From Malachius bipustulatus (lineage: Eukaryota > Arthropoda > Insecta > Coleoptera > Melyridae), in assembly GCA_910589415.1 (NCBI GenBank), contig OU342630.1, positions 84,998,186-85,062,185 of the forward strand: DNA of 64,000 nt, written 5' to 3'. Shown piece after piece: positions 360 through 56,506 of the stretch. The notes beneath the pieces were generated by a model. That model saw nothing but the letters and a program-made list of their open reading frames with translations, did no database searches and was not told the origin of the DNA. The translations under genes and the position numbers were made by a program. Every line of letters begins with the position of its first letter. Position 1 is the first letter of the stretch.

Positions 360-599
360 GGGCCAGTTGCACAAACGTTAATTAAAGATTTGTCAGATAA
401 TTACTGATTTTAAATTGCAAATTTTGAAAATATGGTGAATATTTTGAATGATATATAATTTTTTATCAGTAGTTAACTCTTCTAAAAGGGAGTATAATTT
501 ATTTCCAACAATATCAGAGCAACAGTTTGATAATACAGGGCATTTTAAAATCAGTAATTATCTGGCAGATCTGTAATTAACGTTTGTGCAACCGGACCC
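360..599. mobile_element. MITE with TA target duplication
   Basis: A 240-bp non-coding element. The left end starts GGGCCAGTTGCACAAACG and the right end, read in reverse, starts GGGTCCGGTTGCACAAACG. The match continues for about 55 bp, including GATAATTACTGATTTTAAA. TA flanks both sides (358-359 and 600-601), which is the target duplication of Tc1/mariner-type transposons. It has no coding capacity, so it would depend on a transposase elsewhere. Confidence 0.85.
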
Positions 600-4706: not shown

Positions 4707-6209
4707 TCAACAAGGGGTACCTTGTTGTCTTATATATCTTATATAACTTTTCATTCTTTTAATTGCTCTTTCCACGTGAATTCTCGCCCTGGCTATACAT
4801 TCTGTCCGACGGATTTGTTCTGGCGTAAATTGTGGCGTTGATAAAAATGTGGTAACATTAATTGCAACCCCATCTGGAAGCAGGTCTTTTATCAAAAATT
4901 CTTTATCGGCGAGAACCAAATCTCCAGGTTCCATCTGTTGTAGCACCCCACAACTGGCAACTATACTTTTATCCGAAGTGGATCCAGAGTACAGGTCGCT
5001 GGCGTAAGTGATCACTCCATTTGGAGCAACTCCTACCAAAGTTTTCAGTGTGTTCTTATGTTTATAGGAACAATACCAAAGTATAAAAAAAATTTAAAAA
5101 TAATAATTGTAAATTCTACTTATTTAGTGATTAAAACTACATACAAAACCGCTGAAAAAACCTCGGTACAGTCCAAAATTATTCTTTGTAAATGTACTGC
5201 AACAATTTGGCAGGCAGGATTTGTTTTGGGAACGTTTGGGGATAGTGCTCATTAGTTTCAAAAACTGCACTTCATGAAGCAAATTAATAAATGTTACGGT
5301 AACATTTGTTACAGTAGCAGCAGCCACATTAAACCTGTAGACTAAATCAGCATGAGGAAAATTTTGCCGCGATTTCATTAGAACCATTCAGGTGCTGAGT
5401 TTCTGCACCTTCCATTTCAAGTAATAATTGATTTGAACATCTTTTACTAAAAATAAAAGACACTCAAAAATACCTCTAGTTGACAATCCCGTGTATTCCA
5501 GGATCAATTCGTCTTTTTCGCAAATATGAGCATAGGTGAAATGTATGCGTTTCGAATACTTTCATCTCTACGCTCTATTTCTAGCTTTTGTAGGAAATTT
5601 TTCTGCTTCCAGTACAGCTACAGAGCTTGTGGCTTGGACAGAAGGTACTGGTTTTCTTGTATACTGGCAGTGAATTCTGGTGTTCTGGCAGTACCCGAAT
5701 AATACAGCACATCTGCAGCGCTGAGGAAGGGTCTGCAATGCTAAAAAGAGAAACCTGATATTGAAATATCAAAATATAAATTGATTACAATCAAGTCAAG
5801 AACAAAACTATAAAAAATTGTAAAGAAATTACAGATTGTTGCCACTCAGCTTGTGCACCTGGTTTTCGTCTTTCTTTCTTTTCGGGTGTTAAATAATGCT
5901 CCTCAAATTTCTTTGCAACATTATGTTGCAAACAAGATCGCAGGTCCCTTAGCTTTATTTTCATCGCGGAAATGGCAACTACACATCTTGCACTGGGTAT
6001 TGGTTCGCCATCTCGCCTGAACATATTACAGAATATAATTATTGTTCAAGTAAAGTGTAAGTAGTTAATTTTTTCAAAGTAAGATTACATTACCTCAAGA
6101 GTCTCATCCATGTTCTTAGTGTTTTCGAATCTTTTGGAAATCGAAAAAAATTGCATCTATCCCTAACATTATTATGGTAACAGTCAGGAGCCCAACACGA
6201 TATTGCCAT
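4707..6209 (-). pseudogene. PIF/Harbinger-like transposase with THAP domain
   Basis: A minus-strand coding region in pieces. The THAP zinc-finger start is at 6209 (MAISCWAPDCYHNN) and runs to a plausible GT donor after 6094. The next exon starts at 6016 (RRDGEPIPSAR). It should continue into the CSCHF part of the C2CH finger, which lies one frame over, so a one-base frameshift sits near 5980. Then come a linker (AKKFEEHYLTPEKKERRK), a region at 5387-5270 typical of the family (NFPHADLVYRFNVAAATVT), and a DDE core. The first D is in IILDCTEVF near 5180, the second in DLVLADKEF (about 4908), and the E in ARIHVERAIKRM (about 4770). THAP fused to a DDE_4 nuclease is known from insect Harbinger-type elements. 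It ends within the segment at 4700. Decayed, not functional. Confidence 0.7.
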
Positions 6210-6985: not shown

Positions 6986-7420
6986 CTACCATAAGATTCT
7001 TTCGCAAATATGAGCGTAGGTGAAATGTATGCTTAAATTTCGAATAATTTCATCTCTACGCTCTATTTCTAACTTTTGTAGGAAATTTTCCGCTTCCAGT
7101 ACAGCTACAGAACTTGTGGCTTGGACAGAAGGTACTAGTTTGCTTGTACTGGCAGTGACTTCTGGTGTTCTGACAGTACCCGAATAATACAGCACCAGCA
7201 CATCTGCAGCTGAGGAAGGGCCTGCAATGCTGAAAAGAGAAACCTGATTTATAAATTGATTACAATCAAGTCAAGAACAAAACTATAAAAAATTGGAAGG
7301 AAATTATAGATTGCTTGCCACTCAAGCTGTGCACCTGATTTTCGTCTTTCTTTCTTTTCAGGTGTTAAATAATGCTCCTCAAATTTCTTTGCAACATTAA
7401 GTTGAAAGATCGCAGGTACT
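6986..7420 (-). pseudogene. Second partial copy of THAP-Harbinger exon
   Basis: This is a close, diverged copy of 5535-5930 in the same orientation. Both contain the coiled-coil-like segment (ENFLQKLEIERRDEIIRNLS), the low-complexity S/T stretch, and the conserved AKKFEEHYLTPEKKERRK linker. The nuclease and most of the THAP domain are missing. It is either a segmental duplication of the first copy or a second truncated insertion. Confidence 0.65.
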
Positions 7421-7579: not shown

Positions 7580-9037
7580 TTAATAATCGTGCCGAATCTT
7601 CTTCCCTTTCCTCTTCTCCACTGGACTCATCAGTACTGTTGAAATTATGAGAGGTCTCACATCGTCAATTATATGCTCGGCCTGAAATGCCTCCCGGATA
7701 ATTTCAGTAGTTTTTGAAATGCATTTCCTCCACATTTCTGGCGTGATAAATTGTAGGGCTAGGGCATCTTTCAAAGTTTGTAAGACTTGCTCTTTGTCGA
7801 TTCTTTTAGGACGATATTCGCCATAAAAATTTTTGCTATCCCTCATACCATTTCAATAGCGTTATACTGACAATGATAAGGGGGTAATCACAAAACCTTA
7901 TGACCGTTTTTTGTCGCTAAGGAATCGTCAACAATTTTTTTTCCTTACAGCTGAGATGAATTTTCGCTAAATCCAGCAATTCGGATTTCAATGCCATGAC
8001 AGGATACTGCATGTTTTTAGAATCGAGCCAATCTTTAATTTCTTGTTTCGTCCAACTTCCTGTTAGTGCTTTGTCGACAATTGTACTGTGGTATGGAGCG
8101 TTATCCAGGATAATTAAAGATGGCTCCTCCAAGCCTTTCAGGAGATTATCTTCGAACCACTTTTCAAACAACTCCGCGTTCATATTGTCGTGGTAATCGG
8201 CAGATTTATTCTTTGTTGCGAAAGCTAAATCTGCTCCCTGTACGAAGCCATTTTTCGTGCCAGCATGGAGGTCTTCCCAGGCTTATGATAGCTTTTCTCT
8301 GACTCGTCTTGCCATGACCGTTTCGATTCACCTGCAAAATTAAATTTTATAAAATAATTATTGACGACTATTATTTTAAGCAATTTGTATCTTTATTCGT
8401 TAGGTATATGAATAATTCAGATTACTATAAAGGTTTCCCGGTGGTAAACTTACCCTTGCTGAAAATCCAAGTTTCATCAAGAAAACCCAAATCTAACGGA
8501 AAATTGCTGTCCAAATTCTCAATAAAGGTCTTTAAAAACTTACGACACAATGTGACTACCTGGGATAGTCCACAGAGCGCTTTCCTGTTATCTGTTTTAC
8601 GATAGCGAAATCCCATTGACTTTAATAATTTCCACAAGGAAGTTTTTTTTTCATTTGGTATATCTGTCTTGTAACAACTTCTTCTAAAATGGTAGATAAG
8701 ACGGTATGAATCCTTCAACTGTACATAGGATAAATGCATTGCCTAATTTCAGTCTTCACTTGATCTGGAACTTCTACAGACTTGTTTTTTTCCGATTTCT
8801 AGTGCATTTCTTTGATAAATCATCCTTACTCGTGGAGCATACCCTTTGAACCATGCGCACAGAAACTTGTACACACTCAGCGATTCCTTTCGGCACAGCC
8901 AAAACACGTGTCACTGGAGCGCCAAACTCTTTTTCTCGAATAAAATAATCGATGGTGTTCAAGACGCACTGGCGACTTTCAGTGCCCAAAAATCTTCGAT
9001 TTTCCATTATGAAAGCACTTATTATAATAAACAACAC
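7580..9037 (-). pseudogene. IS630-like (Sailor/DD82E-like) transposase, nearly full length
   Basis: Minus strand. The likely start is the ATG at 9007 (MENRRFLGTESRQC), followed by a helix-turn-helix (GIAECVQVSVRMVQRVC). After a break come a second DNA-binding stretch (LWKLLKSMGFRYRKTDNRKA) and the first catalytic D in LGFLDETWIF (codon 8476-8478). The second D is in LIILDNAPYHS (codon 8103-8105). The E is in YHCQYNAIEM (codon 7852-7854), about 83 residues further on, the spacing of the DD82E/Sailor group. In-frame stops replace expected residues just before LPPYHCQYN and where the family has W after IEMV. The C-terminal part continues to about 7580. The ribozyme array begins 70 bp upstream of this gene's start. 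Inactive. Confidence 0.8.
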
Positions 9038-9093
9038 AATAAAACAAATCGCAAGTTGTAGGTTAACTTCGGTAATTTTAATGACTTTTTAAC

Positions 9094-9106
9094 ACTTTTA
9101 ATTATA
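9094..9106. repeat. Left 13-bp direct repeat flanking the ribozyme array
   Basis: ACTTTTAATTATA here is repeated exactly at 16238-16250, on the other side of the array. Three or four bases at each junction also occur in the array unit, so the true duplication may be about 10 bp. It looks like a target-site duplication of one insertion event. Confidence 0.6.
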
Positions 9107-12100
9107 AAAATAAATAAAAATAAAATAGCACGGTGGGTTCGGCTTTCGCCATAGGATGCAACCCCAGGCAGCTAAAACGCATGCCAACAACTGAGTGCAG
9201 TGCCTCCCGATGTGCGTAAAGGTAGGATAGGCCTACTTCCAAAGTTTAACAAAAAGATGAACGACATATCGTAAAACGATACGTCATTCATTGATTTCAT
9301 GCTGTGAGTCAGGGGTGGAAATTGTAGACACGTGTTTCGTCCTAATTGGGACTCTTCAGTACAATGTATCTTGCTAACACACAGCACAATTTAGTCACTT
9401 AATAGTGAGCAAAATGATAAAAATAAATAAAAATAAAATAGCACGGTGGGTTCGGCTTTCGCCATAGGATGCAACCCCAGGCAGCTAAAACGCATGCCAA
9501 CAACTGAGTGCAGTGCCTCCCGATGTGCGTAAAGGTAGGATAGGCCTACTTCCAAAGTTTAACAAAAAGATGAACGACATATCGTAAAACGATACGTCAT
9601 TCATTGATTTCATGCTGTGAGTCAGGGGTGGAAATTGTAGACACGTGTTTCGTCCTAATTGGGACTCTTCAGTACAATGTATCTTGCTAACACACAGCAC
9701 AATTTAGTCACTTAATAGTGAGCAAAATGATAAAAATAAATAAAAATAAAATAGCACGGTGGGTTCGGCTTTCGCCATAGGATGCAACCCCAGGCAGCTA
9801 AAACGCATGCCAACAACTGAGTGCAGTGCCTCCCGATGTGCGTAAAGGTAGGATAGGCCTACTTCCAAAGTTTAACAAAAAGATGAACGACATATCGTAA
9901 AACGATACGTCATTCATTGATTTCATGCTGTGAGTCAGGGGTGGAAATTGTAGACACGTGTTTCGTCCTAATTGGGACTCTTCAGTACAATGTATCTTGC
10001 TAACACACAGCACAATTTAGTCACTTAATAGTGAGCAAAATGATAAAAATAAATAAAAATAAAATAGCACGGTGGGTTCGGCTTTCGCCATAGGATGCAA
10101 CCCCAGGCAGCTAAAACGCATGCCAACAACTGAGTGCAGTGCCTCCCGATGTGCGTAAAGGTAGGATAGGCCTACTTCCAAAGTTTAACAAAAAGATGAA
10201 CGACATATCGTAAAACGATACGTCATTCATTGATTTCATGCTGTGAGTCAGGGGTGGAAATTGTAGACACGTGTTTCGTCCTAATTGGGACTCTTCAGTA
10301 CAATGTATCTTGCTAACACACAGCACAATTTAGTCACTTAATAGTGAGCAAAATGATAAAAATAAATAAAAATAAAATAGCACGGTGGGTTCGGCTTTCG
10401 CCATAGGATGCAACCCCAGGCAGCTAAAACGCATGCCAACAACTGAGTGCAGTGCCTCCCGATGTGCGTAAAGGTAGGATAGGCCTACTTCCAAAGTTTA
10501 ACAAAAAGATGAACGACATATCGTAAAACGATACGTCATTCATTGATTTCATGCTGTGAGTCAGGGGTGGAAATTGTAGACACGTGTTTCGTCCTAATTG
10601 GGACTCTTCAGTACAATGTATCTTGCTAACACACAGCACAATTTAGTCACTTAATAGTGAGCAAAATGATAAAAATAAATAAAAATAAAATAGCACGGTG
10701 GGTTCGGCTTTCGCCATAGGATGCAACCCCAGGCAGCTAAAACGCATGCCAACAACTGAGTGCAGTGCCTCCCGATGTGCGTAAAGGTAGGATAGGCCTA
10801 CTTCCAAAGTTTAACAAAAAGATGAACGACATATCGTAAAACGATACGTCATTCATTGATTTCATGCTGTGAGTCAGGGGTGGAAATTGTAGACACGTGT
10901 TTCGTCCTAATTGGGACTCTTCAGTACAATGTATCTTGCTAACACACAGCACAATTTAGTCACTTAATAGTGAGCAAAATGATAAAAATAAATAAAAATA
11001 AAATAGCACGGTGGGTTCGGCTTTCGCCATAGGATGCAACCCCAGGCAGCTAAAACGCATGCCAACAACTGAGTGCAGTGCCTCCCGATGTGCGTAAAGG
11101 TAGGATAGGCCTACTTCCAAAGTTTAACAAAAAGATGAACGACATATCGTAAAACGATACGTCATTCATTGATTTCATGCTGTGAGTCAGGGGTGGAAAT
11201 TGTAGACACGTGTTTCGTCCTAATTGGGACTCTTCAGTACAATGTATCTTGCTAACACACAGCACAATTTAGTCACTTAATAGTGAGCAAAATGATAAAA
11301 ATAAATAAAAATAAAATAGCACGGTGGGTTCGGCTTTCGCCATAGGATGCAACCCCAGGCAGCTAAAACGCATGCCAACAACTGAGTGCAGTGCCTCCCG
11401 ATGTGCGTAAAGGTAGGATAGGCCTACTTCCAAAGTTTAACAAAAAGATGAACGACATATCGTAAAACGATACGTCATTCATTGATTTCATGCTGTGAGT
11501 CAGGGGTGGAAATTGTAGACACGTGTTTCGTCCTAATTGGGACTCTTCAGTACAATGTATCTTGCTAACACACAGCACAATTTAGTCACTTAATAGTGAG
11601 CAAAATGATAAAAATAAATAAAAATAAAATAGCACGGTGGGTTCGGCTTTCGCCATAGGATGCAACCCCAGGCAGCTAAAACGCATGCCAACAACTGAGT
11701 GCAGTGCCTCCCGATGTGCGTAAAGGTAGGATAGGCCTACTTCCAAAGTTTAACAAAAAGATGAACGACATATCGTAAAACGATACGTCATTCATTGATT
11801 TCATGCTGTGAGTCAGGGGTGGAAATTGTAGACACGTGTTTCGTCCTAATTGGGACTCTTCAGTACAATGTATCTTGCTAACACACAGCACAATTTAGTC
11901 ACTTAATAGTGAGCAAAATGATAAAAATAAATAAAAATAAAATAGCACGGTGGGTTCGGCTTTCGCCATAGGATGCAACCCCAGGCAGCTAAAACGCATG
12001 CCAACAACTGAGTGCAGTGCCTCCCGATGTGCGTAAAGGTAGGATAGGCCTACTTCCAAAGTTTAACAAAAAGATGAACGACATATCGTAAAACGATACG

Positions 12101-12585
12101 TCATTCATTGATTTCATGCTGTGAGTCAGGGGTGGAAATTGTAGACACGTGTTTCGTCCTAATTGGGACTCTTCAGTACAATGTATCTTGCTAACACACA
12201 GCACAATTTAGTCACTTAATAGTGAGCAAAATGATAAAAATAAATAAAAATAAAATAGCACGGTGGGTTCGGCTTTCGCCATAGGATGCAACCCCAGGCA
12301 GCTAAAACGCATGCCAACAACTGAGTGCAGTGCCTCCCGATGTGCGTAAAGGTAGGATAGGCCTACTTCCAAAGTTTAACAAAAAGATGAACGACATATC
12401 GTAAAACGATACGTCATTCATTGATTTCATGCTGTGAGTCAGGGGTGGAAATTGTAGACACGTGTTTCGTCCTAATTGGGACTCTTCAGTACAATGTATC
12501 TTGCTAACACACAGCACAATTTAGTCACTTAATAGTGAGCAAAATGATAAAAATAAATAAAAATAAAATAGCACGGTGGGTTCGG
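9107..12585 (-). repeat. Left arm of 313-bp tandem array (11 units)
   Basis: Eleven head-to-tail copies of a 313-bp unit that look identical by eye, plus a partial copy ending at the centre. Each unit has an A/T-rich stretch (ATAAAAATAAATAAAAATA), a GC-richer body (AGCACGGTGGGTTCGG onward), an imperfect 35-nt palindrome and a minus-strand hammerhead ribozyme. Each unit also contains the same 71-codon minus-strand frame. I do not regard it as a gene, because it simply overlaps the ribozyme and palindrome. The arm is the mirror image of 12611-16237. Confidence 0.95.
9321..12495 (-). ncRNA. Eleven type I hammerhead ribozymes (minus strand)
   Basis: One ribozyme per unit, each 45 nt, at 9321-9365, then starting at 9634, 9947, 10260, 10573, 10886, 11199, 11512, 11825, 12138 and 12451. 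On the minus strand each reads AUUGUA, CUGAAGA, GUCC-CAAUUA-GGAC, GAAA, CACGUG, UC, UACAAU. In the first copy, cleavage would fall between 9327 and 9326. All invariant core positions of the hammerhead family are present. Transcription of this arm leftward would be cut into 313-nt RNAs with 2',3'-cyclic phosphate and 5'-OH ends. Confidence 0.9.
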
Positions 12586-12610
12586 TGGGTTTTTTATTTT
12601 TTTATTTTTT
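12586..12610. other. Centre of the large palindrome
   Basis: About 25 bp of unique T-rich sequence between the two arms. The left arm stops within the unit after GCACGGTGGGTTCGG, and the right arm resumes at ATTTATTTTTATCATTTTG. The spacer repeats GGTGGGTT once and then has three runs of T separated by A. The exact edges are uncertain by a few bases because the arms also contain T-rich words. Confidence 0.7.
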
Positions 12611-12674
12611 TATTTATTTTTATCATTTTGCTCACTATTAAGTGACTAAATTGTGCTGTGTGTTAGCAAGATAC

Positions 12675-15600
12675 ATTGTACTGAAGAGTCCCAATTAGGA
12701 CGAAACACGTGTCTACAATTTCCACCCCTGACTCACAGCATGAAATCAATGAATGACGTATCGTTTTACGATATGTCGTTCATCTTTTTGTTAAACTTTG
12801 GAAGTAGGCCTATCCTACCTTTACGCACATCGGGAGGCACTGCACTCAGTTGTTGGCATGCGTTTTAGCTGCCTGGGGTTGCATCCTATGGCGAAAGCCG
12901 AACCCACCGTGCTATTTTATTTTTATTTATTTTTATCATTTTGCTCACTATTAAGTGACTAAATTGTGCTGTGTGTTAGCAAGATACATTGTACTGAAGA
13001 GTCCCAATTAGGACGAAACACGTGTCTACAATTTCCACCCCTGACTCACAGCATGAAATCAATGAATGACGTATCGTTTTACGATATGTCGTTCATCTTT
13101 TTGTTAAACTTTGGAAGTAGGCCTATCCTACCTTTACGCACATCGGGAGGCACTGCACTCAGTTGTTGGCATGCGTTTTAGCTGCCTGGGGTTGCATCCT
13201 ATGGCGAAAGCCGAACCCACCGTGCTATTTTATTTTTATTTATTTTTATCATTTTGCTCACTATTAAGTGACTAAATTGTGCTGTGTGTTAGCAAGATAC
13301 ATTGTACTGAAGAGTCCCAATTAGGACGAAACACGTGTCTACAATTTCCACCCCTGACTCACAGCATGAAATCAATGAATGACGTATCGTTTTACGATAT
13401 GTCGTTCATCTTTTTGTTAAACTTTGGAAGTAGGCCTATCCTACCTTTACGCACATCGGGAGGCACTGCACTCAGTTGTTGGCATGCGTTTTAGCTGCCT
13501 GGGGTTGCATCCTATGGCGAAAGCCGAACCCACCGTGCTATTTTATTTTTATTTATTTTTATCATTTTGCTCACTATTAAGTGACTAAATTGTGCTGTGT
13601 GTTAGCAAGATACATTGTACTGAAGAGTCCCAATTAGGACGAAACACGTGTCTACAATTTCCACCCCTGACTCACAGCATGAAATCAATGAATGACGTAT
13701 CGTTTTACGATATGTCGTTCATCTTTTTGTTAAACTTTGGAAGTAGGCCTATCCTACCTTTACGCACATCGGGAGGCACTGCACTCAGTTGTTGGCATGC
13801 GTTTTAGCTGCCTGGGGTTGCATCCTATGGCGAAAGCCGAACCCACCGTGCTATTTTATTTTTATTTATTTTTATCATTTTGCTCACTATTAAGTGACTA
13901 AATTGTGCTGTGTGTTAGCAAGATACATTGTACTGAAGAGTCCCAATTAGGACGAAACACGTGTCTACAATTTCCACCCCTGACTCACAGCATGAAATCA
14001 ATGAATGACGTATCGTTTTACGATATGTCGTTCATCTTTTTGTTAAACTTTGGAAGTAGGCCTATCCTACCTTTACGCACATCGGGAGGCACTGCACTCA
14101 GTTGTTGGCATGCGTTTTAGCTGCCTGGGGTTGCATCCTATGGCGAAAGCCGAACCCACCGTGCTATTTTATTTTTATTTATTTTTATCATTTTGCTCAC
14201 TATTAAGTGACTAAATTGTGCTGTGTGTTAGCAAGATACATTGTACTGAAGAGTCCCAATTAGGACGAAACACGTGTCTACAATTTCCACCCCTGACTCA
14301 CAGCATGAAATCAATGAATGACGTATCGTTTTACGATATGTCGTTCATCTTTTTGTTAAACTTTGGAAGTAGGCCTATCCTACCTTTACGCACATCGGGA
14401 GGCACTGCACTCAGTTGTTGGCATGCGTTTTAGCTGCCTGGGGTTGCATCCTATGGCGAAAGCCGAACCCACCGTGCTATTTTATTTTTATTTATTTTTA
14501 TCATTTTGCTCACTATTAAGTGACTAAATTGTGCTGTGTGTTAGCAAGATACATTGTACTGAAGAGTCCCAATTAGGACGAAACACGTGTCTACAATTTC
14601 CACCCCTGACTCACAGCATGAAATCAATGAATGACGTATCGTTTTACGATATGTCGTTCATCTTTTTGTTAAACTTTGGAAGTAGGCCTATCCTACCTTT
14701 ACGCACATCGGGAGGCACTGCACTCAGTTGTTGGCATGCGTTTTAGCTGCCTGGGGTTGCATCCTATGGCGAAAGCCGAACCCACCGTGCTATTTTATTT
14801 TTATTTATTTTTATCATTTTGCTCACTATTAAGTGACTAAATTGTGCTGTGTGTTAGCAAGATACATTGTACTGAAGAGTCCCAATTAGGACGAAACACG
14901 TGTCTACAATTTCCACCCCTGACTCACAGCATGAAATCAATGAATGACGTATCGTTTTACGATATGTCGTTCATCTTTTTGTTAAACTTTGGAAGTAGGC
15001 CTATCCTACCTTTACGCACATCGGGAGGCACTGCACTCAGTTGTTGGCATGCGTTTTAGCTGCCTGGGGTTGCATCCTATGGCGAAAGCCGAACCCACCG
15101 TGCTATTTTATTTTTATTTATTTTTATCATTTTGCTCACTATTAAGTGACTAAATTGTGCTGTGTGTTAGCAAGATACATTGTACTGAAGAGTCCCAATT
15201 AGGACGAAACACGTGTCTACAATTTCCACCCCTGACTCACAGCATGAAATCAATGAATGACGTATCGTTTTACGATATGTCGTTCATCTTTTTGTTAAAC
15301 TTTGGAAGTAGGCCTATCCTACCTTTACGCACATCGGGAGGCACTGCACTCAGTTGTTGGCATGCGTTTTAGCTGCCTGGGGTTGCATCCTATGGCGAAA
15401 GCCGAACCCACCGTGCTATTTTATTTTTATTTATTTTTATCATTTTGCTCACTATTAAGTGACTAAATTGTGCTGTGTGTTAGCAAGATACATTGTACTG
15501 AAGAGTCCCAATTAGGACGAAACACGTGTCTACAATTTCCACCCCTGACTCACAGCATGAAATCAATGAATGACGTATCGTTTTACGATATGTCGTTCAT

Positions 15601-16162
15601 CTTTTTGTTAAACTTTGGAAGTAGGCCTATCCTACCTTTACGCACATCGGGAGGCACTGCACTCAGTTGTTGGCATGCGTTTTAGCTGCCTGGGGTTGCA
15701 TCCTATGGCGAAAGCCGAACCCACCGTGCTATTTTATTTTTATTTATTTTTATCATTTTGCTCACTATTAAGTGACTAAATTGTGCTGTGTGTTAGCAAG
15801 ATACATTGTACTGAAGAGTCCCAATTAGGACGAAACACGTGTCTACAATTTCCACCCCTGACTCACAGCATGAAATCAATGAATGACGTATCGTTTTACG
15901 ATATGTCGTTCATCTTTTTGTTAAACTTTGGAAGTAGGCCTATCCTACCTTTACGCACATCGGGAGGCACTGCACTCAGTTGTTGGCATGCGTTTTAGCT
16001 GCCTGGGGTTGCATCCTATGGCGAAAGCCGAACCCACCGTGCTATTTTATTTTTATTTATTTTTATCATTTTGCTCACTATTAAGTGACTAAATTGTGCT
16101 GTGTGTTAGCAAGATACATTGTACTGAAGAGTCCCAATTAGGACGAAACACGTGTCTACAAT
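12675..16162 (+). ncRNA. Twelve type I hammerhead ribozymes (plus strand)
   Basis: Copies start at 12675, 12988, 13301, 13614, 13927, 14240, 14553, 14866, 15179, 15492, 15805 and 16118, each 45 nt. In the first copy: stem I 5' strand 12675-12680, CUGAAGA 12681-12687, stem II GUCC 12688-12691 with GGAC 12698-12701, GAAA 12702-12705 (the last A pairs with U 12712), stem III CACGUG 12706-12711, C17 at 12713 with cleavage after it, stem I 3' strand 12714-12719. Stem III has no loop and is self-complementary. In known metazoan type I hammerheads of this kind, activity is best as a dimer, which a tandem transcript supplies. Confidence 0.92.
12749..12783. other. Imperfect 16-bp hairpin in every array unit (first plus-strand copy)
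   Basis: ATGAATGACGTATCGT and ACGATATGTCGTTCAT form a 16-bp stem with two mismatched positions and a TTT loop. It sits 30 nt after the ribozyme's 3' end and recurs in all 23 units with the 313-bp period. It could be a protein or RT binding structure, or an origin-like fold. No function can be read from the sequence. Confidence 0.7.
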
Positions 16163-16237
16163 TTCCACCCCTGACTCACAGCATGAAATCAATGAATGAC
16201 GTATCGTTTTACGATATGTCGTTCATCTTTTTGTTAA

Positions 16238-16250
16238 ACTTTTAATTATA
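16238..16250. repeat. Right 13-bp direct repeat flanking the ribozyme array
   Basis: Exact copy of ACTTTTAATTATA at 9094-9106. The first few bases also continue the truncated last unit. Confidence 0.6.
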
Positions 16251-17617: not shown

Positions 17618-18375
17618 CCCACTGAGCAAGAATACGTTGCAGCAACATTCACTAAACGTTTCAATGTCAGCTTGCAATGTTGCATATAAGTTACAAATGG
17701 CCTCCCACAATGTTCCTGCAATGTTGAAACGGCCGTGCAGTAACATTGCTCTCGCAACATTGCAAAGCGTAACATTGCGAGAATGATAGAAAAGTAACGT
17801 TGCCTCAATTTTACAATCGAAATATTGCAGCAAGGTTACCAATGAATCTTATCTGCTATGTATGAAGTATAATGTTACAGGAACATTGTCAGTGATGATT
17901 GCTGAAATATAGCAATTATTATTTTGCAGAGAGGTTGCTGTTACAATCTCACAGGTACGTTTACGTCGTGTTTTAACTGAAACATTGCAAGGAGTTTTTT
18001 TATAAACCTTGTAGGGATATTGTTAATGTATTATTCCTGAAATGTTTGAATTGTACTATTGTTGGAAGGTTTTTTATAAACCTTGCCGGGATATTGTTAA
18101 TTTATTATTCCTGAAATGTTTGAATAGTGCTATTGCTGGAAGGTTTTTTTATAAACCTTGCCGGAACATTGTTAATGTATTATTCCTGAAATGTTTGAAT
18201 AGTGCTATTGCTGAAAGGTTTTTTTATAAACCTTGTCGGAATATTGTTTATGTATTATTCCTGAAACGATTGAATTTTATTATTGCAGGAATGTTTTTTG
18301 TTAAAGGTGATATTATTGTTATTGCATTGTTACTGAAATGTATGAAATATAATATTGCAGAAACTTTAATACCTA
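17618..18375. repeat. CCCACTGAGCAAG-ended repeat with internal 75-bp tandem copies
   Basis: The left end is TA followed by CCCACTGAGCAAG (17618-17630). The interior at 17640-17870 is crowded with GCAACATTG and AATGTTGC words. From about 17980 to 18290 there are four copies of a 74-75-bp unit (TTATTCCTGAAATGTTTGAA starts at 18031, 18105, 18180 and 18255). The opposite terminus is not clear. A matching inverted terminus occurs at 48380-48392. Probably a non-autonomous DNA transposon with expanded internal repeats. Confidence 0.6.
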
Positions 18376-24844: not shown

Positions 24845-25119
24845 GCTTGTCCACTAAGTGTTGTCCGGTGAGATGCCACACTGATCCTGACTATAAACGA
24901 TTTAATTTTTTATGTTTTAATTCGTACTAATTCTAATTATTATAATTGTACGAATCAAATCAATTATTGTATTATAATATTTATATTATAATAATAATAA
25001 ATATTATAATTATAATATAAATCAATTATTATAATTTTACGAATTAAAACATAAAAAATCAAATCGTTTATAGTCAGGATCAGTGTGGAAACTCACCGGA
25101 CAACACTCAGTGGACAAGC
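24845..25119. mobile_element. Palindromic MITE
   Basis: A 275-bp near-perfect palindrome. Both ends read GCTTGTCCACTNAGTGTTGT and continue CCGGTGAG and GATCCTGACTATAAACGATT. The centre is a TAATATT-rich loop. The target duplication is not certain. This MITE would fold into a single long hairpin. Confidence 0.75.
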
Positions 25120-31293: not shown

Positions 31294-33311
31294 TCAATGC
31301 GAGATCAAGGTTATGCATACATTGCCGTAAATGATACATTTTGAGATTACATCTGAAATCTGACAAAACTTAATCTCACTAGAAAGTTCAGATACTCTGC
31401 AAAAATTGAAAATTTTAGAATCACATGGTGCTGTAAAATAAGCTTCAATTTCCCCATATTGCTTATAAAGTAAATATATATTATTGCTTTCAACACATTG
31501 TATGATATCAACAACTTTTACAAAAATATTATTTTTTATAAGACAGTGGTTCAACTTCAAATTATTAACACCAAATGTAAAATGATTATATTTTACTTTT
31601 GCAAAGGATTTACAGAGTACGTTATTCAATAAGGGTTCGCGATAATTTTTCTTCATGTGAATCAATTGAGTGTGATTAGATTCACATTTTTGAAAATTAT
31701 ACTTCAATCGCTCATATGTACGATTTATAAATTGCTGTAGTGGCTTGTTACATGTTTTTAATACTAATTTGATGTCTTTCAAGAAATTTTCGAATTTAAA
31801 AGCACTAAAACTATGAAGAGGTCCAAATTTAAAAACGTCTTTTGCTAAATGTAATAAATTATGCACATTATATGTCACATACTCATGACCGTATATTGAC
31901 CCATATTTTCTGACAAAATATTCTAATAGATTATGCGCATATGTATTCATAGATCTACAGAGATTTGGAGTTGAGAGAATTTTAATAGCACAATGTAGGG
32001 ACAAAAAATGAATATACTGGCATTTGCTAATTCTATCTTTTAGGACAATTGGGCCAGTATACAATAAAAACTGTCTTAGTTCGGTGGCTTTCCAACGGTC
32101 GATTTCTCCAATTGGTCGTGGTAGTCTCGCAAAATCTCCAAAATACATAACTGACCTAAGTGATGCAAGAGATTCTGTTACTTTCTTTAAATCATCAGGA
32201 TTCATTCTAACATTTACATTACCACGTACCAAGAACAAAATTAGCCTCTTTACAACACCCAAGCAAACAACATGCATGTAGTCAAGAGGAACTTGCTCGA
32301 TTAAATCGAAATTCTTCAACTTCAAAATAGGAGTTTCAGCAGTGTGGTAATCTTCGTATGCCCCTGCTCTAAATTGCTGATTAGACCTTAAATTTGAGTG
32401 CAGTTCTGGAAAAGTCATTCGGCCATTTATGTAAGAGCCTTCTGCTGTACACTTTGTACACCCAAAGTAAGCATTATGTCCTTTAACACCCAACACAAAA
32501 GATTTCGCAGGCGCATCACAAATTATTTTGTCAAGTTTTACATAAATTACAACATCTCTATACATGAAACCATTTTTTTCTAAACAAAGATATTCTTTAA
32601 CGAATAATTTTAATAAAGCTCGACAATTAAGTGGCTTAGAGACGCCATGGAAAACACCTACCACAAAAACTTCGTTGTAATGATCTTCAGCAATGCTACA
32701 TAAAATGGGCCATAATTGGCTATTAGAACTTTTTGTCAGTGGTAAGCCATCAATATTAATATCAAGTTTTAAAATATTGTTTTTCTGCGGACAATAATTA
32801 TATTTTTCCAACATAGCCAACAAGCCTTCTCGCAAGCCAAAATGATAGTACAGCCCGCCATTGGAAAACCTAATGATATTATTTTTTCTTTCAATCTTTT
32901 TAAGAGTTCGACAATCATTTGGTAAATCTTTCAGTTCTTTGGAATTAAAATTTGGGTCCTTCAAGATTTTTAATAGGTCGTTAAAAACTTTATTTGATAC
33001 TCGCCCTTGAATAGCCCATTGAGTTAGTTTTTGTTTTAGAGTTATTTGTTTCCTTGGTATTAGGGGAGGAATTATTGGCCTTGATATGATATTATGAATC
33101 TGAATAGGTCTTGAAATTGAGGAAGTTGATTGTGTAGGAATTTCTGATGAGGTTGGTTTTAATTGATGGTCTGTTAATTCAGCACCACATTCGTCTATCT
33201 TTTTAGCCTTATTCTTCTGTATTTTTGATATTTCTCTCAACGCCCTGCGTTTTGCAATACTTCTTAAATATTTTGTTGTCATCGAACTCAGAGATTTTCG
33301 AAAACTATCCT
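31294..33311 (-). CDS. CACTA/EnSpm-type transposase (662 codons or more)
   Basis: An uninterrupted minus-strand frame from the ATG at 33282 to the stop at 31294-31296. The frame is open upstream to a good splice acceptor (ttttacag before GATAGTTTTCG at 33311), so earlier exons probably exist. By residue: basic N-terminus (1-30), S/T/P-rich linker (30-80), then the TNP2-like core. The core includes LDINIDGLPLTKSSNSQLWP (D178), ICDAPAKS (D256), the zinc-knuckle-like FGCTKCTAEG (275-282) and LDYMHVVCLGVVKRL (D334). A helical C-terminal region follows, with YNVHNLLHLAKDVFKFGPL. These are landmarks of CACTA transposases, which cut and rejoin element ends in the nucleus. No stop or frameshift is visible, unlike every other transposase here. 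That suggests recent arrival or selection (domestication). Confidence 0.8.
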
Positions 33312-34690
33312 GTAAAATATAATTATTGTGAAAGTTTCGTCAATTCCATAAAGGAGTTGTATGTTGTATCTTTACAGTTTAGGGATGCAATATTCGGCAA
33401 CTAAATATTTGGACATTTTGCTCGTAAATAATAATAGCTTGGATTGATCACAGTTAACAATGATAGTACAGTGTAAACAGATAACAGCTTAGTGTAAACA
33501 GGTAGGTAACTTATACCTACCTACCTGAAATTTTTAAAGCTGAATAGGAGAAACGTTCAAGCATTGACAGTAGGTATTTCCACTTTACTTACAGCATCAT
33601 GCTCTTGCATCTATATATTTAAGGAGTTTCTTTTTATCTTGAAAAATACTGATTTATTCCTACAAGGTGGTGCATTATCATCAATTGGATATTATTTTTT
33701 GGAATTATTTAGAGAAATTATGAAATAAAAAATTACTGTTTTTAAGTAGGTCCTTTCAATTTATAAAAAAAAAACGCTTATTCAATGGTTAGAGCAGGGG
33801 AAAGGTAGCGTAGTACGTAGTCATAGTGTCAGAGAAAAGGACAAAGTTCATATTATTGTCTATCTATTTCATGACAAGAGACAAACAATAATGTAAATAT
33901 AGGATGAGCTCATCAACCAGGTTCCAGGGTTGATACTAATGGGCTATAAATCACATTTCACATTTTGAATTTTGGACATTTCTTGTTCTTGAAATCTCAC
34001 GAATTTACATTATTTCTCTTGTTTTTTATTAAGCCAGGAAATTAATGAAATTATATAGAAATTGCTTACACTTTACCTACCTAGCACCCACTTGAAATTT
34101 AAATCACAGGATATCAAGTTTCAATATGAAACAGCCAATATGCAAGTCAATAAACATCTCCTAATAACATAACACTGAATTATCACCATTAGTAGTGCAT
34201 TTCCGAGAATTTATTGTTTTATTAGGACCTACGGTCTTGGAATTCCTAGAACATCCTTGATTGAAAGATGCATGTGGGAAACTTGTTATATGAACAAGTT
34301 GGACGGGCAGCCCTCAAATAAAATAAAGAAGTCACAGATGGGAGACCGCACTAGTGTGGACTCTCCAGGAATTTAATGGGGTATTCGGCAAAAATCGATA
34401 TTCGTTGCACCCCTACTTTACATAGTCACCTGTAATTTATTTATAAGAAATATTAATAAAATGGTGACTCTTCGGTCTTAACGGGAGTGCCATTCCCCGG
34501 ATGTCGATTGATAGAATGAATCAAAAATAGCTACAAAATTTATTCCCCCTGGCACTCCTACAAATATATGTTTATTACCTCTTTGAGTTGGGGGTGTAAA
34601 AACAATTTTTTGTAATAATTTTTATTAGTTGGCTAATTTTGATAATTTCAGATTAAATTTACTATTATTTGCGACAAAAAACTAGAAAAC
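33312..34690. other. No gene seen; candidate intron of the CACTA gene
   Basis: AT-rich, with short GTAGGTA-type words. If the exon at 37414-37431 joins the acceptor at 33312-33313, this is intronic. Confidence 0.4.
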
Positions 34691-36777: not shown

Positions 36778-37320
36778 ACTCGGGTGAAGTTAAAGACGAA
36801 TAAGTTAGCGACGGGAATGGCTTAACACTTTGCTCGGATAAGATAATAATTTCACTACTTAATGTGTTTATATTTCTTGAATGACAATGGAATGCCACTT
36901 CTTGAAGTCATGTGAGATATTTGCACGCAAAAATAAAAAAATCTCCTCAACTTATATTCGGTAGAAAAATTAAAACGCCAGCGATACACGAAAGGCACTT
37001 AAGATGTAATTTTCGATTTTGGGCTATAAAAACTGCCTTTCGTGCGTCGCTGGAGTTTTAATTTTTCTTATAACGACGGAGAAAGATCTACCCTATCATG
37101 CCCTCCTGAAAACTCGCCTTGTCCGGGCCCAGAACGGCCACCATGAATTTTGTTCCTTCAGATTTCAAGCTTTAAAAATTATCTTGAACTAAAAGAACTA
37201 AATATAAGTTGCTAAGATTTTTTATTTTTGCGTGCAAATATCTCACATGACTTCAAGAAGTAAGATTTCATTTTCATTCAAGAAATATAAGCACATATTC
37301 GTCGTTAACTTTACCCGAGT
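36778..37320. mobile_element. MITE of about 543 bp with long inverted repeats
   Basis: The left end is ACTCGGGTGAAGTTAAAGAC and the right end in reverse is ACTCGGGTAAAGTTAACGAC. The arms go on through CATGTGAGATATTTGCACGC to a central hairpin (GCGAYRCACGAAAGGC). The loop includes a GC-rich piece near 37100-37145. If the first-exon proposal below is right, it sits in that intron. Confidence 0.75.
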
Positions 37321-46150: not shown

Positions 46151-46339
46151 TAACACCACTATTTTTTATACAGGGTACAGGGTGTTATTTGACAAACTAA
46201 TTACAGAGCAATGAAAGAATATATCGATCAGGTGACTAAAGTAAAAATAGATAAGAACAAAAAAAACTGTCAATGCTTTGATCATTGACAGTTTTTTAAT
46301 AATTTTTTTTTAATAATAATAATAATTATTGTATATATA

Positions 46340-46615
46340 CAGGGTGTTCAGCTAAGGGTACGGAGCGGCCATATCTCGGGAACTGTTGGTCCTAGCCTCA
46401 AAATAAAAATTTTCCAAACATAAGTGACCAAGAAAAATTCATTGAAAATATTTTCAAGATGGTCGCACTTCCGTAAATACCAGAAGTCGACAGCTACTTT
46501 GTTATTTTACGGCGGATACCCACTATATTATAATTTTTTTAAATTCTCTGAAAAAATCGAAAGCAAGTGGTTCTAGATATGGCCGCTACGTACCCTTAGC
46601 TGATGAACACCCTGT
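46340..46615. mobile_element. TA|CAGGGT MITE (276 bp)
   Basis: Left end CAGGGTGTTCAGCTAAGGGT, right end in reverse CAGGGTGTTCATCAGCTAAG, flanked by TA (46338-46339 and 46616-46617). Short arms, with no coding content. Confidence 0.85.
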
Positions 46616-46645
46616 ATATGTGATTTAAACGCAAGTTTTCTATAG

Positions 46646-47819: not shown

Positions 47820-48392
47820 TTTCCAGTAATGTTGCTTTGTAAGCTTGCTGTTATGTTGGAACAACATTTACGTGAAATATTCAGCAGAACCAACAAAAAT
47901 CACATCCCCGCAATGTTATTATTGCAACGTTGTTTCAATATTTCAAATCTAAAGTTGCCTCAACCAACGTTATTCAAATATTGCTTAGTAAGCTTGCTGT
48001 TATGTTGCAACAACATATGTATACGTGAAATATTCAACAGAACTGACAAAAATCACATCCCCGCAACGTTATTATTGCAACGTTGTTTCAATATTCAAAA
48101 TCTAATGTTGCCTCAATCAACTTTATTCAAATATTGCTTTGTAAGCTTGCCGTTATGTTGCAACAACATTTACGTGAAATATTCAACAGAACCGACAAAA
48201 ATCACATTCCGGCAACGTTATTATGGCAAAGTTGTTTCAATATTCAAACTCTAATGTTGCCTCAATCAACGTTATTCAAATATTGCTTTGTAAGGTTCTA
48301 AAAACATTGCAGTAACTTATTTACACAACTTTCGACATAACTCAAAATTGTAATGTTCCTGTAACATTTTGTAATGTTCCTTGCTCAGTGGG
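47820..48392. repeat. AATGTTGC-rich 150-bp tandem repeats ending CTCAGTGGG
   Basis: About three units with AAGCTTGCYGTTATGTTG at 47841, 47990 and 48143, each containing CAACAACAT, ACGTGAAATATTCARCAGAA and AAAATCACATYCC. The right end is CTTGCTCAGTGGG followed by TA, the inverse of the left terminus at 17618. It looks like the same transposon family as 17618-18375. The left terminus is not found. A 141-codon frame across it only reflects the repeat. Confidence 0.6.
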
Positions 48393-49507: not shown

Positions 49508-49652
49508 TGACAGTTGTCAAGTCTGGAGCGCCCGAGAACCCAATTAAAGAGTTTCGACTCAGACAGCAACACACATCCAACCAGACTACCAAAAGCACGG
49601 ACGGCCGTTTCGGTCTCATTAGACCTCGTCAGCGTACTATATTGGAGATTAA
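49508..49652 (-). mobile_element. Short hammerhead-bearing insertion in hAT
   Basis: A segment of about 145 bp that interrupts the hAT reading frame between codons for LKH and RYV. It holds the ribozyme at 49595-49637 near its minus-strand 5' end, followed by unique sequence (GGTAGTCTGGTTGGATGTG, CTCGGGCGCTCC). It is probably a truncated ribozyme-bearing retroelement (retrozyme- or Penelope-type). Exact borders are uncertain, and no poly-A or target duplication is clear. Confidence 0.5.
49595..49637 (-). ncRNA. Type I hammerhead ribozyme, solitary
   Basis: Minus strand: stem I GUACG (49637-49633), CUGACGA (49632-49626), stem II GGUCU-AAUG-AGACC, GAAA (49611-49608), stem III CGGCCG (self-complementary), U601 and C600 with cleavage after C, then stem I CGUGC (49599-49595; four Watson-Crick pairs and one G-U). 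All invariant core bases are present. Sequence outside the core differs from the 313-bp array ribozyme, so it is a separate family. Both share the loopless six-base stem III. Confidence 0.85.
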
Positions 49653-55257: not shown

Positions 55258-56506
55258 TCATTTGGTAGATAGGTACGTACTGACTTGGACTGCATCTTTG
55301 CTATTTGGTTTCTGGAATTGATCCCCGAAATCTTCTCTGTGCATCCATCTTGTTTTGTATTTTGTTATATGTCTTGAAGTAATCCTAAGTCTGCACAGTA
55401 CGTTGTTCCAAATATTGAATGAAATACCACTTGTGCAGCTCCTTCTCCTGTAAAATCCTCCGCAGATGCTCATGGGGAATGATGTTGTTATGGGATTGTA
55501 CATGCACCATTGCTGCTCCCACTCCTGAGAAAGTGATCATGTTTATTATGCTGTCGTCCACTGTGAAGGTCCTTCCATTTGAGTGCCTTAGCAAGTATTC
55601 TATTCTCTTTCCTGCTGCATCCCTTGTTGAAAACTCTGGTTTTCCCCACCATATGAAAAGTGCTAGAAAGTTGAAGGGCAGAAATACTCGGTTTTGATTC
55701 CTTGCTGTAGTTATCTTGATAATCTGGCCCATTGTTTTCACTATTTCTCTTGTTTCAGCTGAACTTCTTCCTTGAATTAAATTCAGGATGTCATCTATGA
55801 ATGGAACATGAGCAAAAGCTCTTTGCCGCTGCTTTCCATTTAGCTGCATACAGTGATGGGGATATAGGTCAGAAGAATTGTCATCGGTCCCAGTGATTGT
55901 GCCATCGAAGATTTCTTTTCTGGTGGGAACGTGCACCCTTCTAGCAAGTTGTGGAAAGATCCATCTAAACCATAATAATTCTCCACTGAGAATTGTGTTG
56001 TGCGGTCATTGGCTTTCGTTACAGTCATGTTGGAATGTCAAATCATCAGCTCCTTCAACCTATGATTGAATCTACACATGAAATCCAAGTAGGGGCCTGC
56101 AGTTCCATACCATTTGTTATTCTCTCTGTGTCCAAATACTTTGTACTCCAAATTAAATCTTGCAGCAGCCTCTTGCAGTATTTTTGCGACATCATCCAGG
56201 TTTGTTGTATAGTTGTTCCCACCTATAGTTACTGTGAAGCCGTTTTGCCTTTCTTTCGTTTCTAGCTCCCTGTACTTGTTTTGCGCATTTTGTCGTAGAA
56301 TGTTGTGAACGGAGAATACAATGTTCCCAATCTGCGCGCCCACACTTAGGTTGTAGATGTGTAACTCAAGTTTCATAAGCTGATGAATCCCAAGGAAAGA
56401 AGCGGTGATGAACTTGAGGACATTGACTTCTGGTCACCATCTAAAGCATATCTCGCTCTTTAGCTGAAGGGATCTCAACTGTAGGGTCGTAAGGGTTCAC
56501 ATTCAT
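55258..56506 (-). pseudogene. Unidentified decayed coding region of about 400 codons
   Basis: Minus strand. The ATG at 56506 (MNVNPYDPTVEIPS) is followed by a stop. A long frame then runs from 56376 (LHIYNLSVGAQIGNIVFSVH) to 56038, where a single TGA (56038-56040) interrupts it. The same frame continues past 56028 (NDRTTQFSVENYYG). A frameshift near 55930 leads into 55936-55385 (PTRKEIFDGTITGT, ARNQNRVFLPFNFLALFIWW). A last shift gives the tail to 55258. Composition is protein-like over the whole length, with no enzyme motif. I cannot name the family. A virus-derived structural gene is one possibility, unproven. Confidence 0.5.

What the first reader, a model, noticed from the sequence alone, without database searches (positions are those of the whole stretch)
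9107..16237. Tandem array of 23 perfect hammerhead ribozymes (retrozyme-like satellite)
Seen: every 313-bp unit contains CUGANGA, a GUCC/GGAC stem II, GAAA, a self-complementary CACGUG stem III, UC at the cleavage site and a perfect 6-bp stem I. Known: type I hammerheads with very short stem III occur in animal retrozymes, Penelope-like elements and some satellites, where dimeric transcripts self-cleave and can be ligated into circles. Inferred: transcripts from this array would resolve to 313-nt linear or circular RNAs. This particular family may be undescribed.
Basis: partly seen in the sequence, partly recalled or inferred. Interest (0 to 1): 0.92.

Follow-up and report, generated by a model that had tools for sequence, protein, structure and literature searches.

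The report
Mirror-image retrozyme insertion, 23 ribozymes
What is very likely an arthropod genome carries two back-to-back runs of an identical 313-base repeat holding 23 predicted self-cutting RNAs, and the short repeat at both edges suggests that one mobile element likely inserted by copying a small RNA circle round and round from both broken DNA ends.

Summary
The ribozymes are there: 23 full-length Rfam Hammerhead_1 matches, 53.5 bits each, every 313 bp. It is not one tandem run: 11 lie on the minus strand and 12 on the plus strand, in two head-to-head arms (9104-12585, 12607-16242) without a base difference in 7,118 bp, meeting at a 21-bp filler. A direct repeat, ACTTTTAATTATA, bounds the structure (13 bp at most, 5 bp beyond doubt). 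It therefore reads as one recent insertion rather than a satellite grown by unequal exchange. The geometry fits a staggered break whose two 3' ends each primed reverse transcription of a circular (or multimeric) RNA; both starts show microhomology (3 and 5 nt; joint chance about 1e-4), and neither arm could have templated the other if the assembled unit count is right. It meets the retrozyme criteria that sequence can test. The family looks like a new member; the mirror-image layout is the unexpected part and resembles Penelope-like and L1 twin-primed insertions. Cleavage, circles, helper enzyme, host species and read support are untested. Against: stem III is weak, and no helper gene was found in the window.

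The parts
9094..9106 (.). Left copy of the 13-bp direct repeat ACTTTTAATTATA (likely target site duplication); its last 3 bases (ATA) also fit the array
   Evidence: Sequence; longest common run of the two edges is 13; array agreement begins at 9104
9104..12585 (-). Left arm: 11.1 units of 313 bp, RNA sense on the minus strand; antisense (cDNA) strand would begin at the left flank, phase 220-223
   Evidence: No mismatch to the unit; TRF; phases
9321..12495 (-). 11 type I hammerhead ribozymes, 45 nt each, every 313 bp: 9321-9365, 9634-9678, 9947-9991, 10260-10304, 10573-10617, 10886-10930, 11199-11243, 11512-11556, 11825-11869, 12138-12182, 12451-12495
   Evidence: Rfam Hammerhead_1, 53.5 bits each
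12586..12606 (.). Centre: 21-bp filler joining the two arms head to head, looks array-derived: a 9-bp backward slip (CGGTGGGTT twice) and T-rich slippage
   Evidence: TRF 8-bp T-rich repeat 12590-12619
12607..16242 (+). Right arm: 11.6 units of 313 bp, RNA sense on the plus strand; antisense strand would begin at the right flank, phase 81-86
   Evidence: No mismatch to the unit; TRF; phases
12675..16162 (+). 12 type I hammerhead ribozymes, 45 nt each, every 313 bp: 12675-12719, 12988-13032, 13301-13345, 13614-13658, 13927-13971, 14240-14284, 14553-14597, 14866-14910, 15179-15223, 15492-15536, 15805-15849, 16118-16162; predicted cleavage 12713/12714 and every 313 bp after it
   Evidence: Rfam Hammerhead_1, 53.5 bits each; cleavage position from the motif
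12654..12740 (+). One ribozyme with its outer stem I (12 pairs), 8 x 8 internal loop, inner stem I (6 pairs), stem II (4 pairs) and weak stem III (2 pairs)
16238..16250 (.). Right copy of ACTTTTAATTATA; its first 5 bases (ACTTT) also fit the array
   Evidence: Sequence

Best explanation
This is a retrozyme-type element that likely inserted in a single event, when both 3' ends of a staggered chromosome break would have primed reverse transcription around a 313-nt RNA circle predicted to be made by its own hammerhead ribozymes. Steps: (a) a copy elsewhere would be transcribed and cut by its hammerheads into 313-nt monomers [predicted from the motif]; (b) monomers would be closed into circles, probably by a host RNA ligase [inferred from published retrozymes]; (c) a staggered cut in AT-rich DNA would leave 3' overhangs of 5 to 13 nt [inferred from the direct repeat]; (d) the top-strand 3' end would anneal near phase 220 of the RNA and the bottom-strand 3' end near phase 81 (phase 1 = first base after the cleavage site), and a reverse transcriptase supplied by another element would run about 11 laps from each side [inferred from geometry, microhomology and identity]; (e) the two cDNAs would be joined head to head [the junction with its 21-bp filler is seen, the process is inferred]. 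Seen directly: 23 motifs, inverted arms, identity of units, direct repeat, filler.
For: 23 Rfam matches. No difference in 7,118 bp of arms, so an upper 95% bound of 4.2e-4 changes per site. 13-bp direct repeat at the edges: shared runs of 13 or more occur in 2 of 19,957 random and 8 of 19,925 AT-matched pairs of 33-base stretches of the window. Head-to-head topology: antisense strand begins at the flank on both sides. Microhomology of 3 and 5 nt at the two starts: at least that in 3.75e-5 (all sites) and 1.2e-4 (AT-rich sites) of 400,000 draws each. The units run through the cleavage site without loss, so the template was circular or an uncleaved multimer. The starts lie in or at the edge of the two longest unpaired stretches of the predicted circle (71-85 and 200-226). 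The right arm (3,636) is longer than the left (3,482), and the left arm up to the shared motif (3,479) is longer than the usable right template (3,342), against copying of one arm from the other. Circle fold -82.0 kcal/mol, 0 of 200 shuffles as low, z -3.9. A Penelope-like enzyme cuts and extends both strands of AT-rich targets (PMC11167929, main text).
Against: Stem III is weak: pair probabilities 0.011 and 0.013, hammerhead fold -20.9 against MFE -23.0 with a mispaired core; the core alone is -3.9 with stem III and -4.7 without. Only 5 bp (TAATT) are duplicated beyond doubt; the other 8 also fit the array. The unpaired-stretch match is modest: 5%, 9%, 7% and 20% of the 313 phases are as unpaired as 220, 223, 81 and 86. 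The Penelope-like enzyme studied started at places not homologous to the cut DNA, did not need ribozyme cleavage and used unprocessed RNA mostly (PMC11167929). No reverse transcriptase or GIY-YIG domain in 64 reading frames of 85 aa or more outside the array. No transcript, read or second copy was seen; blastn of the unit against the rest of the window gave only short matches, nearly all in its A/T-rich tract. The length argument fails if units were lost or gained in assembly.
Confidence: 0.62

Rival explanations
1. Snap-back: one target end primed a single cDNA around the circle; its free end folded back and copied itself, giving the mirror image, and the far end was joined to the other flank by repair.
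For: Head-to-head inverted Penelope copies with palindromic junctions are interpreted as self-priming in PMC3846280 (passages). Slippage at the centre.
Against: Neither arm is long enough to template the other: right 3,636 against left 3,482; left 3,479 against 3,342 usable; holds only if the unit count is right. Both edges show microhomology.
Confidence: 0.13
2. Two-ended priming, but on a linear multimeric transcript that escaped ribozyme cleavage, not on a circle.
For: Weak stem III; a Penelope-like enzyme used unprocessed RNA mostly, in vitro (PMC11167929).
Against: Needs a transcript with about 12 uncut ribozymes, copied twice, from a source array without variation between units.
Confidence: 0.13
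3. Ordinary satellite DNA, or a reinserted extrachromosomal DNA circle, that happens to carry a hammerhead; unequal exchange made the copies and a later inversion flipped half of them.
For: Hammerhead satellites are known in cave crickets, newts and schistosomes (PMC2837043, passages; PMC7229834).
Against: No unit differs; the repeat at both edges; orientation changes once, at a filler, with outward sense on both sides; a simple inversion would not place microhomology at both outer edges.
Confidence: 0.07
4. Assembly artefact: the mirror image or the identity of units was made by the assembler or by chimeric reads.
Against: The flanks differ, share the 13-bp repeat, and the arms end at different phases, 220 and 81; a fold-back artefact would mirror one arm.
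Confidence: 0.05

Closest known systems
Metazoan non-LTR retrozymes (Cervera and de la Pena 2020, PMC7229834)
   Same: Non-coding tandem repeats of 170-400 nt with type I hammerheads, GC below 45-50%, target duplications longer than 4 bp where present; invertebrate stem III of two pairs and a tetraloop.
   Different: Two inverted arms without variation between units; the paper's main text does not use the words inverted, orientation, opposite or head-to. Circular RNA is shown there, untested here.
Endonuclease-bearing Penelope-like elements (PMC3846280 passages; PMC11167929 main text)
   Same: Head-to-head inverted copies, 8-10 bp target duplications, AT-rich targets, extension of both strands in vitro.
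   Different: No reverse transcriptase or endonuclease gene here; RT start is described there as not homologous to the cut DNA, whereas 3 and 5 nt of microhomology are seen here.
LINE-1 twin priming (recalled; no paper on it opened)
   Same: Two primers at one staggered break, outward sense on both sides, target duplication.
   Different: Neither arm ends in a poly(A) tail; the template would be a small circle, not a long mRNA.
Hammerhead satellite pDo500 of cave crickets (PMC2837043, passages)
   Same: Insect tandem repeat with a hammerhead.
   Different: No inversion or transposition is mentioned there (terms searched: 0 hits for inverted and transpos); here one bounded insertion.

Membership tests
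Type I hammerhead ribozyme (RF00163) | Covariance-model match above gathering score, full core | tested here: met
   23 matches, 53.5 bits against 34, model 1-45 of 45
Type I hammerhead ribozyme (RF00163) | Stable stem III in the single motif | tested here: inconclusive
   2 pairs, probability about 0.01 in the computed ensemble; 8-nt palindrome could pair between motifs, -10.3 kcal/mol; published invertebrate motifs are similar
Type I hammerhead ribozyme (RF00163) | Self-cleavage | not testable with these tools
   Needs in vitro transcription
Metazoan non-LTR retrozyme | Tandem unit of about 170-400 bp with one type I hammerhead per unit | tested here: met
   313 bp, one motif per unit
Metazoan non-LTR retrozyme | GC below 45-50%, no long open frame | tested here: met
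   41.2%; longest stop-to-stop frame 72 codons sense, 38 antisense
Metazoan non-LTR retrozyme | Target duplication longer than 4 bp, when present | tested here: met
   13 bp at most, 5 bp beyond doubt
Metazoan non-LTR retrozyme | No LTR, primer binding site or polypurine tract | not tested
   Units follow each other head to tail up to the edges, so no separate terminal repeats are seen; no search for PBS or PPT was made
Metazoan non-LTR retrozyme | Highly self-paired circular RNA expressed in tissue | not testable with these tools
   Only the fold was computed: -82.0 kcal/mol, z -3.9; no RNA data
Penelope-like element | Reverse transcriptase with or without GIY-YIG endonuclease | tested here: not met
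   Unit has no such frame; none in 64 frames of 85 aa or more elsewhere in the window. It may still be moved by one
Penelope-like element | Head-to-head inverted copies with target duplication | tested here: met
Classical satellite DNA | Head-to-tail array with monomer variation and no target duplication | tested here: not met
   Inverted, no variation, direct repeat at edges

The most novel reading that the evidence does not exclude
A nearly fresh genomic footprint of two-ended rolling-circle retrotransposition: both ends of one staggered break primed on a 313-nt ribozyme-born RNA circle, and the enzyme ran about eleven laps from each side. If so, animal retrozymes can integrate as mirror-image concatemers and appear as instant satellites, which ties their life cycle to the two-strand chemistry of Penelope-like elements.
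Probability: 0.55. Interest if true: 0.75.

Novelty: new variant of a known kind. Interest (0 to 1): 0.57.

Why it matters
How animal retrozymes integrate, and which enzyme moves them, is left open in the paper that defined them: it names LINEs or Penelope-like elements as candidates and proposes copying of circles (PMC7229834). Here both edges, both start points and the joining point can be read in a copy without mutations, which gives exact predictions: staggered 3' overhangs, two start phases in unpaired RNA, a head-to-head join. It would also show how a homogeneous satellite can arise in one event.

Tried and rejected
Snap-back copying: disfavoured on arm lengths, given the assembled unit count. 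Simple satellite growth: disfavoured on identity, inversion and direct repeat. Helper enzyme in the window: none among 64 frames of 85 aa or more outside the array; shorter frames were not scanned. Relatives elsewhere: exact 26-base core in viral contigs, 0; core with free positions in viral contigs, 0 and prokaryote genomes, 0; a two-unit query in phages, no match; the 72-codon frame in the protein collection, no candidate. The pattern (prokaryote genomes, 0) was badly written: its loop is one base too long and would not match the window itself, so says nothing. None of these is an animal DNA library, so the blanks say little. Promoter: no A box, B box or TATA by simple patterns in the unit, either strand. 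MIR8562-like match at 12466-12704 (97.3 bits, cut-off 211): it spans the palindrome's centre and is taken as the palindrome, not a microRNA.

Literature searches. In their listings I saw no account of inverted retrozyme arrays, but one search listed 20 of 1,981 papers, one search was swamped by unrelated papers, subscription papers and supplementary files were not seen, and PMC11722881, which holds both 'retrozyme' and 'inverted', was not opened. Seen: PMC7229834 main text parts 1-4 of 6 and a term search; PMC11167929 outline and main text section; passages only of PMC3846280, PMC7761336, PMC2837043, PMC4918200, PMC8490949.
Full report
What is there. At gathering scores the Rfam scan of the window lists 23 matches, all Hammerhead_1, each over the full model at 53.5 bits and E 4e-11. 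They come every 313 bp: eleven on the minus strand (9321-9365 to 12451-12495) and twelve on the plus strand (12675-12719 to 16118-16162). TRF gives the same two arrays, 9100-12585 and 12607-16242. Compared base by base, 9104-12585 and 12607-16242 (3,482 + 3,636 = 7,118 bp) agree with one unit without exception. The unit has 41.2% GC; its longest stop-to-stop frame is 72 codons, for which the protein collection offered no candidate.

The ribozyme. Core, stem II (GUCC/GGAC, loop CAAUUA) and inner stem I (AUUGUA/UACAAU) align to the Rfam consensus. Beyond inner stem I come an 8 x 8 internal loop and an outer stem of 12 pairs. Stem III is weak: two pairs and the palindromic tetraloop ACGU, with computed pair probabilities of 0.011 and 0.013; the hammerhead fold is -20.9 kcal/mol against an MFE of -23.0 in which the core is mispaired. 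The 45-nt core is -3.9 with stem III and -4.7 without it; the 8-nt palindrome ACACGUGU paired between two motifs gives -10.3 kcal/mol. PMC7229834 describes two pairs and a tetraloop as similar to invertebrate hammerheads, and dimeric action for weak amphibian ones. Cleavage, alone or as dimers, is thus plausible and untested. The circle of 313 nt folds to -82.0 kcal/mol, and none of 200 dinucleotide shuffles is as low (mean -64.8, z -3.9).

The edges. ACTTTTAATTATA stands at 9094-9106 and again at 16238-16250. Random pairs of 33-base stretches of the rest of the window share a run of 13 or more in 2 of 19,957 cases, AT-matched pairs in 8 of 19,925. The last three bases of the left copy and the first five of the right copy also fit the array, so 5 bp (TAATT) are duplicated beyond doubt and 13 bp at most. 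With 13 bp, the 3' ends of the two target strands match the template by 3 and 5 nt where the antisense strand starts; random sites and phases give at least that in 3.75e-5 of 400,000 draws, AT-rich sites in 1.2e-4 of 400,000. With 5 bp, the same 8 matches would have to be chance. The insertion lies about 90-100 bp upstream of an ATG at 9007 (minus strand) in a frame at 8777-9088; it belongs to a region that looks to me like a decayed DDE-type transposase (recalled motifs; the frame 7917-8282 has no Pfam match at 0.001). Joining the flanks does not restore a frame on the minus strand (three frames looked at).

Geometry. In both arms the RNA sense points outward; the 5' ends meet at the centre, and the antisense strand begins at the flank on either side. 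Two 3' overhangs that each primed reverse transcription would give this. The left start would be at phase 220-223, the right at 81-86 (phase 1 = first base after the cleavage site). The two longest unpaired stretches of the predicted circle are 200-226 and 71-85; 5%, 9%, 7% and 20% of all 313 phases are as unpaired as 220, 223, 81 and 86. This is suggestive only, since AT-rich priming favours unpaired A/U stretches anyway. The centre has 21 bp of filler, with CGGTGGGTT twice in tandem and T-rich slippage. Copying of one arm from the other is disfavoured: the right arm (3,636) exceeds the left (3,482), and the left arm up to the shared motif (3,479) exceeds the usable right template (3,342). 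This depends on the assembled unit count.

Mechanism. The most economical reading is one recent insertion made by two-ended target-primed reverse transcription of a circular RNA. The units run through the cleavage site without loss, so the template was circular or an uncleaved multimer; identity of all units favours a circle. The helper is unknown. PMC7229834 proposes copying of circles by LINE or Penelope-like enzymes. PMC11167929 shows a Penelope-like enzyme cutting and extending both strands of an AT-rich target; against my reading, that enzyme starts at places not homologous to the cut DNA, does not need ribozyme cleavage and uses unprocessed RNA mostly. PMC3846280 describes head-to-head Penelope copies with 8-10 bp duplications and prefers self-priming (passages). 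PMC4918200 mentions 15-bp duplications around Nematostella hammerhead repeats (passages). LINE-1 twin priming has the same topology (recalled).

Host and limits. The 681-aa frame at 31294-33339 has 2,084 homologues at E up to 0.001 among 7,973 scored candidates; of the 120 listed, those with an organism name are arthropods (beetles, ants, a planthopper, ticks), at most 50% identical. The window is very likely from an arthropod, probably an insect; the species is unknown. In the window, the 64 frames of 85 aa or more outside the array match 15 Pfam families at E up to 0.01, among them several transposase domains, and no reverse transcriptase or GIY-YIG domain. Against the rest of the window, blastn of the unit gives only short matches of at most 30 bases, nearly all in the A/T-rich tract.

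Judgement. The retrozyme criteria tested from sequence are met; RNA features are untested and PBS/PPT were not searched. The mirror-image, duplication-bounded, mutation-free layout is a variant that I did not see described for retrozymes in the listings or in the main text of PMC7229834; those searches cover open-licence papers only.

Noticed in passing
window 31294-33339, minus strand: 681-aa open frame without Pfam match whose named relatives are arthropod proteins, several called transposase domain-containing.
   Followed up: partly
window 7917-9088, minus strand: Broken frames that look like a decayed DDE-type transposase; the retrozyme sits just upstream of its likely start.
   Followed up: partly
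window 4707-5093, minus strand: DDE_Tnp_4 fragment, E 1.3e-29.
   Followed up: no
window 5516-5931 and 7000-7407: Blocks of 33-93 nt repeated about 1.48 kb apart at 90-97% identity.
   Followed up: no
window 17994-18299 and 47828-48294: Tandem repeats of about 75 bp (4.1 copies) and 149 bp (3.1 copies), unlike the retrozyme in being imperfect.
   Followed up: no
window 360-418 and 540-598: 59-nt inverted repeat, 90% complementary, 121 nt apart.
   Followed up: no
window 24853-25111 (+), 36964-37067 (+), 46335-46619 (-): Sub-threshold matches to microRNA families MIR7533 (70.8 of 230 bits), MIR9563 (34.7 of 90) and MIR8562 (31.4 of 211); perhaps inverted-repeat elements.
   Followed up: no
window 49577-49650, minus strand: Weak Hammerhead_HH9 match, 22.8 bits against 52, E 0.37; probably chance.
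   Followed up: no
window 55385-56433, minus strand: Two adjacent frames of 206 and 131 aa; the first has no Pfam match at 0.001, the second was scanned only in the pooled. Origin not determined.
   Followed up: no
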